Shown: positions 45,928 to 52,434 of the stretch, one piece after another
Numbering within the stretch: the stretch's first letter is position 1
Layout: every line of letters begins with the position of its first letter
Origin: Gammaproteobacteria bacterium
GTDB taxonomy: Bacteria; Pseudomonadota; Gammaproteobacteria; SZUA-152
DNA: 55,099 bases
Assembly (NCBI GenBank): GCA_021648485.1
Contig: JAKISS010000014.1
Coordinates: forward strand, 1-55,099
Direction of reading: 5' to 3'
Notes under the pieces: model-generated
What the model saw: the letters and a program-made list of their open reading frames with translations, nothing else
Database searches by the model: none
What the model was told of the DNA's origin: nothing
Program-made: the position numbers and the translations under genes

Positions 45928-48747
45928 ATGAAAACTGAACCTGGTGACAAAGCCCTTCGGGCACGCGTTAAACTGTTAGGTACATTGCTCGGCAACATCC
46001 TGCACGAACAGGAAGGCAATGACGTGCTCACAGCAGTAGAAACCCTGCGCAAAGGTTATATCAACCTGCGTAAAAACGACACGCCAAGCAAACGCCGTCG
46101 CCTCACCCGGTTTATCGAAGGTCTGTCATCCGAGAGCCTGGTGCATATCGTACGTGCCTTCAGTACCTATTTCAGCCTTATTAATCTTGCCGAAGAATCC
46201 TACCAGCACCATCAGCGTCGCAAACAGGTACGCCAGGTCAATGGTAACAATACGCTCTGGACCGGCTCTTTTGATACCACCCTGCATGAACTGCACGACC
46301 AGGGCATTAATTCTGAACAACTGCAAACCTTGCTCAATCAACTGGCCTATATTCCGGTGATCACCGCGCATCCCACTGAAGCCAAACGCCGCACTATTAT
46401 GGATGCACAGCGTCGTATCTTTTTAACCAATGAAGAACTCGGCGACACCCGACTGACCAAATCGGAAAAAGCAGCACTGATTGACAAACTCGAAAGCCAG
46501 ATTCAAATTCTTTGGAAAACCGATGAAGTGCGCGCCATCCGCCCTCGCGTCAAAGACGAAATCAATTACGGACTCGCCTATTTCAACGAATGTTTGTTCG
46601 ATGCGGTTCCTAACACCTACCGGAATTTTGAAAATGCCGCATTGCGTGTTTGCGGTACAACGGCAGAGGGCAAACCCAAAATTACCATTCCCAGTTTTTT
46701 ACGCTTTGGATCGTGGATCGGCGGTGACCGTGACGGCAACCCCAACGTCAAACCAGAAACCACGATCATGGCCGTACGCTTACAGTCTCAAACCATTTTA
46801 CTGGAATACCTCACGCGTATTCCTGTACTCATCGAGCTGCTGACCCATTCCAATAAACTTTGCACACCCACACAGACAATGCATGACAGCCTGGAGCGTG
46901 ATGAGCAATTCACTGAGCATGCCTTCGCCGACAAACCGGAACGTTTTACTCACGAACCCTACCGGCGCAAACTGAGCATTATGCGTTACCGGCTTGAGCG
47001 TAATCTTGTTGCACTGAAAAACAAACTTCAGGAGCGCACTGAGCGCGACGACACATACACCATCGACCGCTACCCGTCCGAAAAAGAATTCCTGATCGAT
47101 CTGAAAACCATTTATGACTCACTGGCCAGTCACGGCGACAAACGTATCGCCGATGGCAAACTCAAAGACCTGATTCGCCTCACCGAGACCTTTGGTTTTT
47201 ATTGCCTGCGCCTGGATGTGCGCCAGGAGTCCACACGGCACAGTGAAGCCGTTGCCGAGCTTTTCAAACAAATCAACATCGACTATTTATCATTAGATGA
47301 AGATGCCCGTCTCACCGTACTGGAAAAATCCATTAAAGACCCTGCGGGTATCGATTCACACAACACCAGCATCAGTACACTCACACAGGAAACGCTGGAT
47401 GTGTTCCGCGCAATGGTACAAATGCGCAACGAAATCAGCAAAAAAGCCTTTGGCAGCTATGTCATTTCCATGACACATGAAGCCAGCCATGTCATGGAAG
47501 TGTTATTCATGGCACGCCTTGCCGGGCTGGCAGGGTATAAAAATGCCGAGGCACAGTGCAGCATTCGCATCACCCCGTTATTTGAAACCATTGAAGACCT
47601 GGCACACATCGAGCCGGTAATGAGCAAACTGCTGGATAATCCCGTTTACGCCGCCATGCTCAAACAGGTCGGCAATTTGCAGGAAATCATGCTGGGCTAT
47701 TCCGACTCCTGCAAAGACGGTGGCATTCTTGCCTCGGTGTGGAGTTTGTACGATGCACAAAAACGTGTAACACAACTTACCAACGCGCACGGTGTACGCT
47801 GTCGCCTGTTCCATGGCCGTGGTGGCACCGTCGGGCGTGGCGGCGGCCCTACCCATGAGGCCATTCTTTCGCAACCGGAAGGCACCGTGCATGGTCAGAT
47901 CAAATTCACTGAACAGGGAGAAGTGCTTTCTTTCAAATACAGCAACCAGGAAACCGCTGTCTATGAACTTACCATGGGCCTCACCGGACTGATCAAGGCC
48001 AGTGCCAATCTCGTGCGACCTGCCGCACCGGAATGCAAAGACTATCTGGCCACAATGGATGAACTGGCCAGCACGGGTGAAACCGCCTATCGTCAACTCA
48101 CCGATCACACCGAAGGCTTTCTGGATTATTTTTACGAAGGCACCCCGGTCAGTGAGATCGGCCTGATGAACATTGGTTCACGCCCGTCACACCGCAAAAA
48201 AGGTGATCGCGCCAAAACGTCAGTACGTGCCATCGCCTGGGTATTTGGCTGGGCGCAATCACGTCACACCCTGCCCGCCTGGTTTGGCATCGGTACCGCA
48301 CTGGAACAGTGGCGTCAGGGTGATCCAGACCGCCTGGCACAATTACAAAAAATGTATCAGCAGTGGCCCTTTTTCCGCGCCTTGCTCAGCAACACACAAA
48401 TGGCCCTGTTCAAGGCCGAACCTAATATCGCCAAAGAATATGCCAAACTGTGTGTTGATGAAAAAACCGGCAAACGCATTTACAAACTGTTCCGGGAAGA
48501 ATATACCCGCACCGTAACGCAAGTGCTCAATATTACGGGCGCAAAACAACTGCTGGAAGAAAACCCGGTACTGGAAGTTTCATTGACGCGCCGAAACCCT
48601 TATCTCGACCCATTAAATCATATTCAACTCACCTTGCTTAAACGCTACCGTGATGAAAGTCTCAGCGACGAACAACGTGCGAGCTGGCTCAACCCGCTGT
48701 TGCGCTCCATCAATGCTATTGCTGCGGGCATGCGCAATACCGGTTAG
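45928..48747 (+). CDS. ppc: Phosphoenolpyruvate carboxylase
   Basis: 939 residues, slightly longer than E. coli (883). Catalytic motifs: VITAHPTEAKRRTIM (His, about residue 147), SWIGGDRDGNPNVKPETT (about 268), MTHEASHVMEVLFMARLAG region, GYSDSCKDGGILAS (about 595), FHGRGGTVGRGGGPTHEAI (about 630), and the C-terminal RNPYLDPLNHIQ with the family ending NTG. Makes oxaloacetate from PEP and bicarbonate to refill the TCA cycle. Stand-alone, with its own terminator. Confidence 0.96.
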   Translation: MKTEPGDKALRARVKLLGTLLGNILHEQEGNDVLTAVETLRKGYINLRKNDTPSKRRRLTRFIEGLSSESLVHIVRAFSTYFSLINLAEESYQHHQRRKQVRQVNGNNTLWTGSFDTTLHELHDQGINSEQLQTLLNQLAYIPVITAHPTEAKRRTIMDAQRRIFLTNEELGDTRLTKSEKAALIDKLESQIQILWKTDEVRAIRPRVKDEINYGLAYFNECLFDAVPNTYRNFENAALRVCGTTAEGKPKITIPSFLRFGSWIGGDRDGNPNVKPETTIMAVRLQSQTILLEYLTRIPVLIELLTHSNKLCTPTQTMHDSLERDEQFTEHAFADKPERFTHEPYRRKLSIMRYRLERNLVALKNKLQERTERDDTYTIDRYPSEKEFLIDLKTIYDSLASHGDKRIADGKLKDLIRLTETFGFYCLRLDVRQESTRHSEAVAELFKQINIDYLSLDEDARLTVLEKSIKDPAGIDSHNTSISTLTQETLDVFRAMVQMRNEISKKAFGSYVISMTHEASHVMEVLFMARLAGLAGYKNAEAQCSIRITPLFETIEDLAHIEPVMSKLLDNPVYAAMLKQVGNLQEIMLGYSDSCKDGGILASVWSLYDAQKRVTQLTNAHGVRCRLFHGRGGTVGRGGGPTHEAILSQPEGTVHGQIKFTEQGEVLSFKYSNQETAVYELTMGLTGLIKASANLVRPAAPECKDYLATMDELASTGETAYRQLTDHTEGFLDYFYEGTPVSEIGLMNIGSRPSHRKKGDRAKTSVRAIAWVFGWAQSRHTLPAWFGIGTALEQWRQGDPDRLAQLQKMYQQWPFFRALLSNTQMALFKAEPNIAKEYAKLCVDEKTGKRIYKLFREEYTRTVTQVLNITGAKQLLEENPVLEVSLTRRNPYLDPLNHIQLTLLKRYRDESLSDEQRASWLNPLLRSINAIAAGMRNTG

Positions 48748-48764
48748 GCATTCTGGATGTATGT

Positions 48765-48787
48765 GTGGGCACAGAAAACGTGCCCAC
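48765..48787 (+). terminator. Hairpin terminator of ppc
   Basis: GTGGGCAC-AGAAAAC-GTGCCCAC, a perfect 8-bp stem 17 bases after the ppc stop, followed by CCTTT rather than a long U-run. Confidence 0.6.
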
Positions 48788-48812
48788 CCTTTGCGCGCGA
48801 ATGGACAAGCAC

Positions 48813-48995
48813 CTAAAACCGATTCATGCCACCCAGCATTCCGCCCAACAGCATCATCAAAACAGCACCAATAATCGACAGAATAATAAATGCAGGAATT
48901 GCCGCCACCGCCCATTTGATCATAAACATAACCATGGACAAAAATGGCATACGTATATCGGTGACCACAACATACTGACTTTCTTCTTCGTTCAT
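48813..48995 (-). CDS. Small membrane protein
   Basis: 60 residues. GGAGAG eight bases upstream of ATG 48995 supports translation. An acidic start MNEEESQYVVVTDIRMPFLS, one long hydrophobic region (MVMFMIKWAVAAIPAFIILS and IIGAVLMMLLGGMLGG). No known function. Convergent with ppc and downstream of bufC on the same strand (126 bases). Confidence 0.65.
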   Translation of the reverse strand: MNEEESQYVVVTDIRMPFLSMVMFMIKWAVAAIPAFIILSIIGAVLMMLLGGMLGGMNRF

Positions 48996-49121
48996 TTTAT
49001 TTCTCTCCTTGTTGTATCAAACCATGAAACGCGGGGGGTAGGGATGAGACAGGTCCGTGCAACGTTGCCCGACACCCATTTGCCATTAACGACAAACCTC
49101 GATGAGATTACGCGCAAGAAT

Positions 49122-49904
49122 TCAGGCTTGCAATTCAACAATCATCCCTGCTGCCAGCCAGCTTTTCAAAAAACCGGCGGCTTTCATAGGTACTGTTTCC
49201 TGATCCTGTATTTCGTCAGCCAGCGCACCGCACAGCTCGGAAAAATTCGCCCCGGCCAATGCCGCCTGTAGCGCAACAGTTTCATCGGCCTCCATGGAAC
49301 GGTACTGTGTCATCAGCTCATGTCGCCATAACAAACACTGCGCCGGTTCCGCCAGGCGCACCGGCTCGGGCACCGTTTCCGCATTTTTCATCATTCGCCA
49401 ACGGATCAGGGTATTCCACCAGATTGCCATCGTACGCACTGAAGGATGAAACCGTATTGTCAGTTCCGCCCATGCCTCAGGGGCAATCGCCGCCGCATCA
49501 GCCTCCGTGGCCACCACAGCATCTGCCGCATCAAACGCACCGACAAAACTCCATTCCAATTGTGCCATTTCAGCAGGCCAGTGATGCTCTCCATTATCGG
49601 GCTGATAACCCAGAAACGCCGGGAAATCCCGGCCAAACCAGCGTAATGAATAATAGTGAGACGGATATTTATGAGTGTATGCCATGCAGGCTTCGTTGAA
49701 GACATCCTCACCCAGAAGTTGTTTCAGGATCTCATAATCACTTTCCAGCGCTTCTTCCAGCCGGGAAAAATAAGCATTGCCGTAGATGGCCAGGCGTACA
49801 TCACTGGAAACAGCTTCCGTACTGTTAATGTATTTACCGAATTCTTCATCCCCGTTGACCACATTGCGCTTGAACGCATTTTGCAATTCTTTCAGCCCGG
49901 GCAT
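49122..49904 (-). CDS. bufC: BufC/HvfC family protein (DUF2063), bufferin maturation partner
   Basis: 260 residues. N-terminal DUF2063 domain: LKELQNAFKRNVVNGDEEF, LAIYGNAYFSRLEEALESDY, LGEDVFNEACMAYTHKYPSH, SLRWFGRDFPAFLGY. The second half (WAELTIRFHPSVRTMAIWWN) is the winged or beta region that contacts the precursor in this family. It overlaps the end of bufB by 13 bases, so it is translationally coupled. It acts with the DUF692 enzyme as the RiPP-recognition partner. Cytoplasmic. Confidence 0.92.
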   Translation of the reverse strand: MPGLKELQNAFKRNVVNGDEEFGKYINSTEAVSSDVRLAIYGNAYFSRLEEALESDYEILKQLLGEDVFNEACMAYTHKYPSHYYSLRWFGRDFPAFLGYQPDNGEHHWPAEMAQLEWSFVGAFDAADAVVATEADAAAIAPEAWAELTIRFHPSVRTMAIWWNTLIRWRMMKNAETVPEPVRLAEPAQCLLWRHELMTQYRSMEADETVALQAALAGANFSELCGALADEIQDQETVPMKAAGFLKSWLAAGMIVELQA

Positions 49905-50788
49905 GATGATGTCTCCCGCTTTTTTGAATTGCCATTTTCCGGCCCATCATTACCCAGCACATCATGGGTAATTTTGCGTAACTCACCTAACTCTGCCATG
50001 AGTTCTGCAAAGGGTGGAAAACAATCATCACGCTCGATCATCGCCGATACCGGACCAAAATGTTTCAGTGCCTCGGCATATAATTCCCACACTGGCTTCA
50101 CCACAGGATGATCGTGCGTGTCGATAACATAATCACCATAATCACTATGCCCGGCGAGATGAAACTGCCACACACGTTCAGCAGGTATGCCTCGGATATA
50201 ATCCAAAGGGTCAAAACCATGATTGCGTGCGCTGACATAAATGTTATTGATATCGAACAGCATGAGACAGTCGGCACGCTGCATGATTTCAGCATGAAAC
50301 TCCCACTCGGTCATTTCCGACTGCACATAGCTCACATAACTGGAGGCATTCTCCAGAAGAATTTGTCGGCCCAGATAATCCTGCACTTGCTGTACGCGCG
50401 CGACAACATGATCAATTGCCTCCTGATTAAAAGGCAGAGGCATCAGGTCATGCAGGTTATGTCCACCCTGCCCGGTCCAACACATGTGATCAGACACCCA
50501 CTGTGGTTCGACACGACCAATCAACTGCTTCAGTCGTTTCAGATATGCCCGGTTCAATGGGTCGGTGCCACCAATGGACAACGACACGCCATGCATCACT
50601 ACCGGATAATTTTCGCGCACCCGATCAAGAAAATGCAGTGGCTTGCCACCGTCTACCATATAGTTTTCCGAGATGATCTCGAACCAATCGACGGCAGGCC
50701 GGGTGTCCACGATGGTTTCGTAATACTCCGGTCGCAGACCCAGACCACACCCCAGAAACGGCTTATCGATTTTCATTTCAGTTTGCAC
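49892..50788 (-). CDS. bufB: BufB/HvfB multinuclear non-heme iron enzyme (MNIO, DUF692)
   Basis: 298 residues from GTG 50788 (AGGTG five bases upstream; ATG 50776 is an alternative). GCGLGLRPEYYETIV opens the TIM-barrel; metal-site motifs are VVMHGVSLSIGGTDPLN, VSDHMCWTG, ILLENASSYV, LMLFDINNIYVSARNHG, WQFHLAGHSDYG, IDTHDHPV and MIERDD. MNIO enzymes oxidise Cys residues in precursor peptides to thiooxazoles or related groups. In the bufferin system BufB with BufC modifies the DUF2282 protein BufA. A terminator separates it from bufA upstream. Confidence 0.94.
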   Translation of the reverse strand: MQTEMKIDKPFLGCGLGLRPEYYETIVDTRPAVDWFEIISENYMVDGGKPLHFLDRVRENYPVVMHGVSLSIGGTDPLNRAYLKRLKQLIGRVEPQWVSDHMCWTGQGGHNLHDLMPLPFNQEAIDHVVARVQQVQDYLGRQILLENASSYVSYVQSEMTEWEFHAEIMQRADCLMLFDINNIYVSARNHGFDPLDYIRGIPAERVWQFHLAGHSDYGDYVIDTHDHPVVKPVWELYAEALKHFGPVSAMIERDDCFPPFAELMAELGELRKITHDVLGNDGPENGNSKKRETSSCPG

Positions 50789-50828
50789 AAAATCACCTTA
50801 ATGCGTATTTACCTGCATCGTCATGCAT

Positions 50829-50878
50829 AAAAAAAGCCGGTATCACAAGGAGAAACATCCCTGCCACACCGGCCTTTT
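50829..50878 (-). terminator. Intrinsic terminator between bufA and bufB
   Basis: On the minus strand AAAAGGCCGGT pairs with ACCGGCTTTTTTT. The 25-base interior forms a second stem (CAGGGA/CTCCTTG). The hairpin ends in seven Ts, 17 bases after the bufA stop. Partial read-through would give much more precursor than enzyme mRNA, as expected for a RiPP. Confidence 0.75.
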
Positions 50879-50894
50879 CAAACAAAAGCGAAAA

Positions 50895-51167
50895 TTAATC
50901 GCCGACTTTACCACCAATAGAATCACAGGCCTGTTTGCTCATGGTAACAAACCCCTGACCCTTGCAAGAGCTTTTACTCTTGCAACCATTCTTGGCTGAT
51001 TTGCAATCATTGTTACCCTTGCATTTGTTGACACCATAACAGTGTACCTTGGCATCATGCCCCTCTCCGTGGCCTTCACCGGCCTGCACAGTCGCCATCG
51101 GCGCAAAGGCAAACAGGCTGGCAGCCGCGACAGCCAGAGCAGCATTTGTGGTTTTCATTGCTTTCAT
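50895..51167 (-). CDS. bufA: Bufferin-type precursor (DUF2282), six core cysteines
   Basis: 90 residues from ATG 51167 (GGAGAG seven bases upstream; an ATG five codons earlier overlaps that site). Signal peptide MKAMKTTNAALAVAAASLFA ... MATVQA, likely cut after residue 29. The short His-rich segment GEGHGEGHDAKVH leads to the core with Cys at 43, 49, 55, 62, 68 and 81: CYGVNKCKGNNDCK, NGCKSKSSCKGQGF and SKQACDS. This spacing, with CxGxNxCKG and SSCKGQGF, is that of DUF2282 bufferins, secreted copper-binding RiPPs matured by BufB-BufC before export. Periplasmic metal sequestration is the expected role. No DoxX-type bufD gene is nearby. Confidence 0.92.
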   Translation of the reverse strand: MKAMKTTNAALAVAAASLFAFAPMATVQAGEGHGEGHDAKVHCYGVNKCKGNNDCKSAKNGCKSKSSCKGQGFVTMSKQACDSIGGKVGD

Positions 51168-51387
51168 CAGTTTTCTCTCCATGGGTTGAATAAAACAGCC
51201 TGATTAAAACATCATGGCTATCAGTAAAAACAAACTACGTATTCTATCAAAACAGGAATTTATCCCGCATCTATCACAACAGTGTGACATCCTCACCCGC
51301 TATACTTAAGGTGTGCGTACAAACTCCGACGCACAATTCCGTCAATTGTTACCGAGCCGATGACAAAATACAACGGGCACAAATGGA

Positions 51388-52434
51388 TTAAAGTTCCAGC
51401 TCCCCTGTGCCCTGCCCCCGCAATTGGTCGGCCACCACCACAGCTTTTCGCCATGCAGGGTCTTGCAACAGAGACTCCCGGTCAATATTGTGTCGCTCAT
51501 GCAAACGGGCCAGACGCACATGAACAACAGGGTCATCGCACGCATCCAGATTATCCAGCAATCGCACCGACTCTGCGGGGTGATTACATACCAGCAACAT
51601 ATCGCAACCTGCCGCCAATGCCGCCTGTCCGCGTTCAACAATATCACCCATTACATGCGCCCCCCGCATGGTGAGATCATCACTGAAGATCACCCCCTGA
51701 AAGCCCAGGCGTTCGCGCAACACCACCTTTAACCAAAACGATGAAAAGCAGGCCGGTCTGTCATCCACTGCCGCATAGATCACATGCGCAGGCATAATAC
51801 CACCCAGCCCACCCCGCACCAGTCGGCCAAAAGGTTTCACATCTTCCGCGTAAATATCTTCGAAACTGCGTTCATCCACCGGCATATCAATATGAGAGTC
51901 CGCCACCACTGAGCCATGCCCCGGAAAATGTTTACCCGTCGCCACCATCCCGGCGCGACGCATACCCAGCATCCAGGAAATGGCCAACTCACCTACCGCC
52001 TCCGGGTTGCGGTGAAAGGCGCGGTCAGCAATCACCGTACTCACCCCAAAATCCAGATCCAGCACTGGCGAAAAACTGAAATCGATACCCACAGCACGCA
52101 GCTCCACCGCCATCAACCACCCGCAGGTTTCCGCCAGATGTTTGGCACGTTTTTTATCATCGTTGAACATTTCGCCAAATACCCTGGCAGGTGGCAGCTC
52201 GGTAAAGCCATGACGAAAGCGCTGTACACGCCCACCTTCATGATCCACCGCCACCAGCAGGTGTGGATCACGCAAACAGTGAATGTCCGCCACCAGTTGT
52301 TGCAGTTGCCCGGGCGACTCATAATTGCGCGTAAACAGAATGACCCCGCCCACCAGTGGATGCAATAACATCTCGCGTTCTTCCGCACTGATTTCCAGAC
52401 CAGCGAGATCCAGCATAATGGGGCCAAGTGACAT
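51388..52434 (-). CDS. nagZ: Beta-N-acetylhexosaminidase NagZ
   Basis: 348 residues, GH3 family. GPIMLDLAGLEISAEEREML, GGVILFTRNYESP, AVDHEGGRVQRFRHGFTELP, KHFPGHGSVVADSH (general acid His/Asp) and IFSDDLTMRGAHVMGDI, where the Asp in SDD is the nucleophile. Removes GlcNAc from muropeptides during cell-wall recycling in the cytoplasm. The C-terminal YESPGQLQQL region is normal. Downstream of hemolysin III on the same strand, 194 bases apart. Confidence 0.95.
   Translation of the reverse strand: MSLGPIMLDLAGLEISAEEREMLLHPLVGGVILFTRNYESPGQLQQLVADIHCLRDPHLLVAVDHEGGRVQRFRHGFTELPPARVFGEMFNDDKKRAKHLAETCGWLMAVELRAVGIDFSFSPVLDLDFGVSTVIADRAFHRNPEAVGELAISWMLGMRRAGMVATGKHFPGHGSVVADSHIDMPVDERSFEDIYAEDVKPFGRLVRGGLGGIMPAHVIYAAVDDRPACFSSFWLKVVLRERLGFQGVIFSDDLTMRGAHVMGDIVERGQAALAAGCDMLLVCNHPAESVRLLDNLDACDDPVVHVRLARLHERHNIDRESLLQDPAWRKAVVVADQLRGQGTGELEL

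What the first reader, a model, noticed from the sequence alone, without database searches (positions are those of the whole stretch)
49122..51167. Complete bufABC bufferin operon with a terminator after the precursor gene
A secreted DUF2282 precursor with six cysteines (43, 49, 55, 62, 68, 81) precedes a DUF692 MNIO enzyme and a DUF2063 partner, overlapping by 13 bases. Established knowledge: MNIO enzymes modify such Cys residues to give copper-binding bufferins that protect cells from the metal. New points seen here: an intrinsic terminator between bufA and bufB that would raise the precursor-to-enzyme ratio; a His-rich GEGHGEGH segment before the core that could add metal binding; no DoxX-type bufD; and a following 60-residue membrane protein. 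The core spacing may bind a different metal set than known members.
Basis: partly seen in the sequence, partly recalled or inferred. Interest (0 to 1): 0.8.

Follow-up and report, generated by a model that had tools for sequence, protein, structure and literature searches.

The report
Copper-buffering peptide operon with internal terminator
This is an ordinary member of a known family of bacterial gene sets that make a copper-binding peptide; its one less familiar feature is a transcription stop signal right after the peptide gene, which probably keeps the peptide abundant and its modifying enzymes scarce.

Summary
The three-gene operon is real and lies on the minus strand: bufA 51167-50895, bufB 50788-49892, bufC 49904-49122, with the 13-base bufB/bufC overlap. 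The precursor has no DUF2282 (Buf1) match; it is a Buf2/BufA2 bufferin (NF050166, 88 bits against a cut-off of 60). BufB passes the bufferin-maturase cut-off; BufC is a DUF2063 partner whose predicted fold matches known MNIO partners.

The "different spacing" is the commonest one: 6-6-7-6-13 in 50 of 60 homologues examined. The GEGHGEGH linker is a local insertion. Lack of an adjacent doxX is usual for Buf2 loci here. The 60-residue ORF is separated from bufC by an opposite-strand antiporter gene in L057, so it is not an operon member.

The terminator holds up: -32.3 kcal/mol, z -7.0, with a related stem in 10 of 10 loci of the window's genus. Hairpins of other sequence recur at this junction: 41 of 78 Buf2 loci against 5 of 51 Buf1 loci, though much of that contrast goes with shorter Buf1 gaps.

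Most likely mechanism: read-through attenuation sets a high precursor-to-enzyme ratio for a copper-buffering periplasmic thiooxazole peptide. No transcript, modification or metal was tested.

The parts
50895..51167 (-). bufA2 precursor gene, 90 aa plus stop (an in-frame ATG at 51182 would give 95 aa)
   Evidence: NF050166 Cu_RiPP_BufA2, 88 bits against cut-off 60; no Pfam match; start choice
51081..51167 (-). Sec-type signal peptide region, residues 1-29, ending VQA before GEGH (read by eye, no predictor run)
   Evidence: sequence shows a basic start, hydrophobic stretch and AxA-like end; aligned across relatives
50925..51041 (-). six-Cys core, spacing 6-6-7-6-13; four central Cys each followed by Lys
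   Evidence: this spacing in 50 of 60 homologues; Cys43, 49, 55, 62, 68, 81 invariant in the 16 sequences aligned
50830..50879 (-). intrinsic terminator hairpin with T run, about 18 nt after the bufA stop, about 41 nt before the bufB GTG
   Evidence: z -7.0; conserved in the genus, 95.2% of cells paired, 3 pairs changed on both sides
49892..50788 (-). bufB, MNIO enzyme (GTG start with upstream AAGGTGA)
   Evidence: NF050167 MNIO_BufB 384 bits against 310; PF05114 376 bits; aligned to MbnB, TglH and 3bww
49122..49904 (-). bufC, DUF2063 partner with a probable C-terminal RRE-like domain; overlaps bufB by 13 bases
   Evidence: PF09836 74 bits against 27; below the NCBIfam HvfC cut-off, 39 against 142; model pLDDT 90.3 matches the TglHI entries 8hci and 8hi7 and 3dee at E about 1e-5; RRE proteins 5v1u and 6jx3 only at E about 0.2
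51253..51279 (-). conserved block TTGTGATAGATGCGGGATAAATTCCTG upstream of bufA, candidate promoter element or operator
   Evidence: aligned in 10 of 10 genus loci; one copy in each of 10 of 12 genus genomes

Best explanation
The locus is a Buf2-type bufferin operon. BufA2 is made in the cytosol. BufB, presented with substrate by the DUF2063/RRE partner BufC, oxidises the four central Cys (each in a Cys-Lys pair) to thiooxazoles. The first and last Cys probably form a disulphide, and the Sec-exported peptide buffers copper in the periplasm. A strong intrinsic terminator just after bufA ends most transcripts, so the small precursor is made in excess while bufB and bufC get only read-through. Shown here: gene families, core spacing, partner fold, the hairpin and its conservation. 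Inferred: modification chemistry, disulphide, export, copper role, termination efficiency and read-through.
For: Family models over their curated cut-offs for BufA2 and BufB and for PF05114 and DUF2063. BufC fold matches the TglHI entries and 3dee. Core spacing is the commonest in 60 homologues, and ERDD at the site that the captophorin paper links to Cys-Lys substrates occurs in 52 of 60 (site mapped by me from the alignment to ERDF of 3bww). Hairpin -32.3 kcal/mol, z -7.0. Related stem in 10 of 10 genus loci, starting 16-19 nt after the bufA stop in 9 of 10 and 186 nt after it in L064. Nine sequences: 95.2% of cells paired against 46-58% in slid controls. First set: -10 kcal/mol or lower in 36 of 60 junctions, 9 of 60 coding controls and 25% of shuffles. 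Larger set: -10 or lower and equalled by at most 2 of 50 shuffles in 41 of 78 Buf2 and 5 of 51 Buf1 loci (Fisher p 5e-7, or 1.8e-5 with the genus counted once). Against other same-strand gaps of 40-350 nt, taken from the 29 named loci: 35 of 55 versus 15 of 45, p 0.005. No sigma70-like site was listed on the minus strand in the bufA-bufB gap.
Against: 37 of 78 Buf2 loci fail the strict hairpin test, including L066 and L068 of the three named Legionella loci scored (L067 passes). Buf1 gaps are shorter (median 27 against 79.5 nt); restricted to gaps of 40 nt or more, hairpins of -10 or lower are 46 of 70 against 6 of 18, p 0.017. Of the 42 loci drawn across the class (L032-L056 and L119-L147 as scored), 18 pass. 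Covariation is modest: shuffles reach the observed measures in 8 to 74 of 500. The hairpin is so strong that it might be a full stop, with bufBC driven by a promoter my scan cannot see. No transcript data. Buf2 chemistry itself is described only as preliminary in PMC12452194 (passages). The BufA model was poor (pLDDT 55.8) and says nothing about the disulphide. The RRE domain match is weak (E about 0.2).
Confidence: 0.72

Rival explanations
1. The hairpin is a complete terminator: bufA is its own transcript and bufBC has a separate, non-sigma70-like promoter inside the 41-nt spacer or overlapping the hairpin.
For: Very stable hairpin with a T run; L059 and L064 have room, with 236 and 89 nt between hairpin and bufB; stand-alone precursor genes exist (PMC12452194 legend passage).
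Against: 8 of 10 genus loci leave only 20-61 nt between hairpin and bufB; no sigma70-like site listed there in the window.
Confidence: 0.15
2. The hairpin mainly acts as a 3' stabiliser or processing end of the bufA message, with differential decay rather than termination setting the ratio.
For: Long, nearly perfect stem conserved in the genus, which would also block exonucleases.
Against: A T run follows the hairpin in all 10 genus loci. In other families the T run is no independent evidence, because the scorer requires one.
Confidence: 0.1
3. A Buf2 operon whose real job is another metal or stress, not copper.
For: The published survey argues for roles beyond copper, and the Legionella gig promoter responds to gold and copper (passages of PMC12452194 and PMC5413113).
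Against: Core, spacing and enzyme site are those of the general Buf2 set; the C. vibrioides pair CCNA_03000-03001 is listed as copper-induced (table passage of PMC8224329; that this pair is the Buf2 operon is recalled).
Confidence: 0.15

Closest known systems
Buf2 (BufA2, Buf_6/12Cys) bufferin operons, as in Caulobacter vibrioides and Legionella
   Same: BufA2 model over cut-off, six Cys, Cys-Lys pairs, MNIO plus DUF2063 partner, signal-peptide-like start
   Different: Nothing essential; this lineage has a short His-bearing linker, no adjacent doxX (as in most Buf2 loci checked) and a conserved terminator after bufA
Buf1 (DUF2282) bufferin operons (gig operons)
   Same: Same enzyme and partner families, same gene order A-B-C
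   Different: Precursor is not DUF2282; the terminator at the A-B junction is uncommon there (5 of 51)
Captophorins: fontiphorin, oxazolin, gonophorin (EGKCG repeats)
   Same: MNIO plus type-1 partner making thiooxazoles on Cys-rich peptides (PMC12668002, start of text and passages)
   Different: Precursor has Cys-Lys rather than Lys-Cys motifs, and BufB has ERDD where 3bww has ERDF
Post-precursor terminators in other RiPP clusters such as nisin and streptolysin S (recalled, no call)
   Same: Hairpin between precursor gene and enzyme genes to favour precursor
   Different: Different chemistry and hosts; my literature searches did not bring up a paper describing this for bufferins, nor one that I could cite for the precedent

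Membership tests
Buf2 / BufA2 bufferin | Precursor over the curated NF050166 cut-off | tested here: met
   88 bits against 60
Buf2 / BufA2 bufferin | Six conserved Cys | tested here: met
   invariant in the 16 aligned; spacing shared by 50 of 60
Buf2 / BufA2 bufferin | Adjacent MNIO of the bufferin-maturase family | tested here: met
   NF050167 384 bits against 310
Buf2 / BufA2 bufferin | Partner with a DUF2063 domain (PME type 1) | tested here: met
   PF09836 74 bits against 27; predicted fold matches TglHI entries and 3dee; the NCBIfam HvfC model stays below its cut-off
Buf2 / BufA2 bufferin | RRE-type domain in the partner | tested here: inconclusive
   RRE proteins 5v1u and 6jx3 rank 4-9 with probability 0.97-1.00 but E 0.17-0.43
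Buf2 / BufA2 bufferin | Adjacent DoxX gene (listed among core genes by the survey, but not defining: excluded from the held stretch in 15 of 18 Buf2 loci) | tested here: not met
   no DoxX near the operon; two matches on other contigs
Buf2 / BufA2 bufferin | Sec signal peptide | tested here: inconclusive
   read by eye and aligned; no predictor available
Buf2 / BufA2 bufferin | Cys-derived thiooxazoles and Cu(I) binding | not testable with these tools
   needs mass spectrometry and metal titration
Buf1 / DUF2282 bufferin | Precursor matches PF10048 | tested here: not met
   0 Pfam families at E 0.1; no match in own genome
RiPP operon with precursor-enzyme attenuator | Stable hairpin plus T run between precursor and enzyme genes | tested here: met
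RiPP operon with precursor-enzyme attenuator | Partial termination giving more precursor message | not testable with these tools
   needs RNA-seq or term-seq

The most novel reading that the evidence does not exclude
Buf2 bufferin operons, as a family, carry a read-through terminator at the precursor-enzyme junction that is repeatedly re-evolved with unrelated stem sequences. It would set the substrate-to-enzyme ratio by transcription, which most Buf1 operons do not do. In the window's genus the conserved stem and the private upstream block would form a two-point control of one copper-buffering unit.
Probability: 0.4. Interest if true: 0.42.

Novelty: new member of a known kind. Interest (0 to 1): 0.3.

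Why it matters
If bufferins act by stoichiometric metal binding, a cell must make far more precursor than enzyme. A transcriptional stop at that junction is a simple, testable answer to how, and the Buf1/Buf2 contrast makes a prediction for RNA-seq of copper-stressed bacteria. It also matters when such operons are moved to E. coli for production, since native junctions could starve the enzyme.

Tried and rejected
Rejected: DUF2282 membership. Rejected: unusual Cys spacing or altered metal set. Rejected: the 60-aa ORF as an operon member; its only Pfam hit was DUF846 below cut-off. Rejected: the GEGHGEGH linker as a conserved metal site. Rejected: the absence of doxX as a new point. Rejected: the hairpin as a dispersed repeat; one exact copy in the own genome and two copies with 2 mismatches, while the reversed control pattern also gave 2. 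No Rfam family at E 1 in 48700-51500. No PADLOC match.

Led nowhere: structure of BufA (pLDDT 55.8); a regulon search for the upstream block, which has only the bufA copy in the own genome within 3 mismatches and one copy in each of 10 of 12 genus genomes; loose patterns for the block matched 13 of 88 upstream regions, 10 of them the genus loci; sequence search of the PDB for BufC and BufA (none). A DoxX search by script with one query found nothing, not even in L199, where the Pfam model has a match, so it was too insensitive and is not used; one search replaced it.

Weak points of the counts: assign start codons mechanically; L042 appears in both the Buf1 and Buf2 lists because a Buf1-type precursor lies between its Buf2 precursor and the enzyme; several genomes give two loci; loci were the best-scoring matches or those I chose to fetch, not a random draw. 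The 35 of 55 junctions come from all loci up to L085, the 45 control gaps only from L057-L085, and the control gaps are longer (median 149 against 81 nt). Dropped rows: 7 of the 67 enzyme loci had no BufA2 hit upstream and were left out; 8 of 30 Buf1 loci had no enzyme found downstream and were left out; precursors without an enzyme within 450 nt were left out. One search used 9 of the 10 genus sequences (L058 left out, its hairpin being identical to that of L057). One search was given 18 of the 29 named loci.

Papers: PMC12452194, start of the text and passages; PMC12668002, start of the text and passages; PMC12538549, PMC5413113, PMC8224329, PMC6107846 and PMC9138089, passages only. The original bufferin paper was looked up by a DOI given from memory and is not held. 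Absence of a published bufferin terminator rests on searches and on zero hits for 'terminator' in five papers; most subscription journals were not searched.

Full report
What is there. On the minus strand lie bufA (51167-50895; an in-frame ATG at 51182 is possible), bufB (50788-49892, GTG) and bufC (49904-49122), with bufB and bufC overlapping by 13 bases. nagZ lies upstream on the same strand and PEP carboxylase lies beyond on the opposite strand. The own genome (3.13 Mb, 86% complete) holds one MNIO match to BufB, one DUF2063 match, no DUF2282 match and two DoxX matches on other contigs. BufA2 is widespread: over the cut-off in 17 of 57 relatives and 51 of 274 genomes of the class.

Families. 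BufA matches NF050166 BufA2 with 88 bits against a cut-off of 60 and no Pfam family. BufB passes NF050167 (384 against 310 bits) and PF05114 (376 bits) and aligns to 3bww, TglH and MbnB. BufC passes PF09836 but not the NCBIfam HvfC cut-off (39 against 142 bits); its model (pLDDT 90.3) matches chain A of the TglHI entries 8hci (E 1.2e-5) and 8hi7, presumably TglI since TglH is chain D, and 3dee (E 2.0e-5); RRE proteins 5v1u and 6jx3 follow only at E about 0.2.

Substrate core. Among 60 non-redundant enzyme loci with a BufA2 hit upstream (7 of 67 without one left out), the last five Cys spacings are 6-6-7-6-13 in 50. The window is therefore typical. Its four central Cys are each followed by Lys. 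The captophorin paper reports that Cys-Lys enzymes carry Asp where the fontiphorin enzyme has Phe250 (passage). In the alignment the window's ERDD lies on ERDF of 3bww, which I take as that site; ERDD occurs in 52 of 60. The GEGHGEGH linker is in the window, L057 and L058; other genus members have shorter or different linkers and many distant ones have no His there.

DoxX. The survey lists DoxX among the core bufferin genes (passage), so I checked its absence: in 15 of 18 named Buf2 loci no DoxX match of the genome has coordinates that could fall in the stretch held around the operon, and 3 (L065, L077, L078) stay open (against the ranges). Absence beside Buf2 is therefore usual.

Terminator. 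The 60-nt stretch 50825-50884 folds at -32.3 kcal/mol, z -7.0, 0 of 200 shuffles as good. The mechanical scan did not list it. In all 10 loci of the genus the junction scores -25.0 to -38.5 kcal/mol with a related stem (L003 differs in its inner part) although the gap runs from 79 to 318 nt; the hairpin starts 16-19 nt after the bufA stop in 9 of 10 and 186 nt after it in L064. On nine aligned sequences 95.2% of cells pair against 46-58% for slid partners, and 3 pairs change on both sides. With so few, related sequences, shuffles reach the observed measures in 8-74 of 500, so covariation alone is modest.

Is it a family trait? In the first set a hairpin of -10 kcal/mol or lower is found in 36 of 60 junctions, in 9 of 60 coding controls and in 25% of shuffles. 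A uniform scorer on 78 Buf2 and 51 Buf1 junctions finds such hairpins, equalled by at most 2 of 50 shuffles, in 41 of 78 and 5 of 51 (Fisher p 5e-7; 32 of 69 against 5 of 51 with the genus counted once, p 1.8e-5). Shuffles reach -10 in 21% and 3% of cases. Much of the contrast goes with gap length: for gaps of 40 nt or more, hairpins of -10 or lower are 46 of 70 against 6 of 18, p 0.017. Other same-strand gaps of 40-350 nt in the 29 named loci give 15 of 45 against 35 of 55 for the junctions. Of the 42 scored loci drawn across the class, 18 pass the strict test. So the trait is common but not universal in Buf2.

Mechanism. A strong hairpin close after bufA, few bases left before bufB, and no sigma70-like site listed on that strand there fit read-through attenuation: much precursor, little enzyme. 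The rest follows the published bufferin model: modification in the cytosol by BufBC, export, copper buffering. None of these steps was tested here.

Upstream control. A block at 51253-51279 is aligned in 10 of 10 genus loci. Its 23-base centre occurs once in the own genome within 3 mismatches and once in each of 10 of 12 genus genomes; the other two, G001 and G008, have no BufA2 match over cut-off. It looks like a private promoter element or operator of this operon, of unknown regulator.

Verdict. An ordinary new member of the Buf2 kind, with a well-supported terminator that appears not to have been described for bufferins in the papers I could search.

Noticed in passing
window 51253-51279, minus strand: Block TTGTGATAGATGCGGGATAAATTCCTG upstream of bufA, conserved in 10 of 10 genus loci and present once per genome in 10 of 12 genus genomes; looks like a private promoter element or operator.
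   Followed up: partly
window 48813-48995 and L057 6683-8147: A 60-aa membrane-protein ORF sits next to PEP carboxylase; in L057 a Na/H-exchanger-family gene on the opposite strand lies between it and bufC, and is missing from this place in the window.
   Followed up: partly
G002 contig C69 and G004 contig C275 (the genomes of L061 and L063): In two genus members a DoxX match lies about 2 kb downstream of the DUF2282 (Buf1) match on the contig of the same number, so in this genus doxX seems to go with Buf1 rather than Buf2 (that G297 and G298 are G002 and G004 is inferred).
   Followed up: no
L198 (own genome, contig C69): The own genome's better DoxX match is preceded by an ORF that looks rhodanese-like by eye, far from the bufferin operon.
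   Followed up: no
L028, L029: Two genus members carry a second Buf2 set with two tandem precursors and almost no gap before the enzyme, hence no terminator there.
   Followed up: no
L073: Legionella sp. PC1000 has a precursor with many KGKNxC repeats and 12 Cys in front of the same enzyme family.
   Followed up: no
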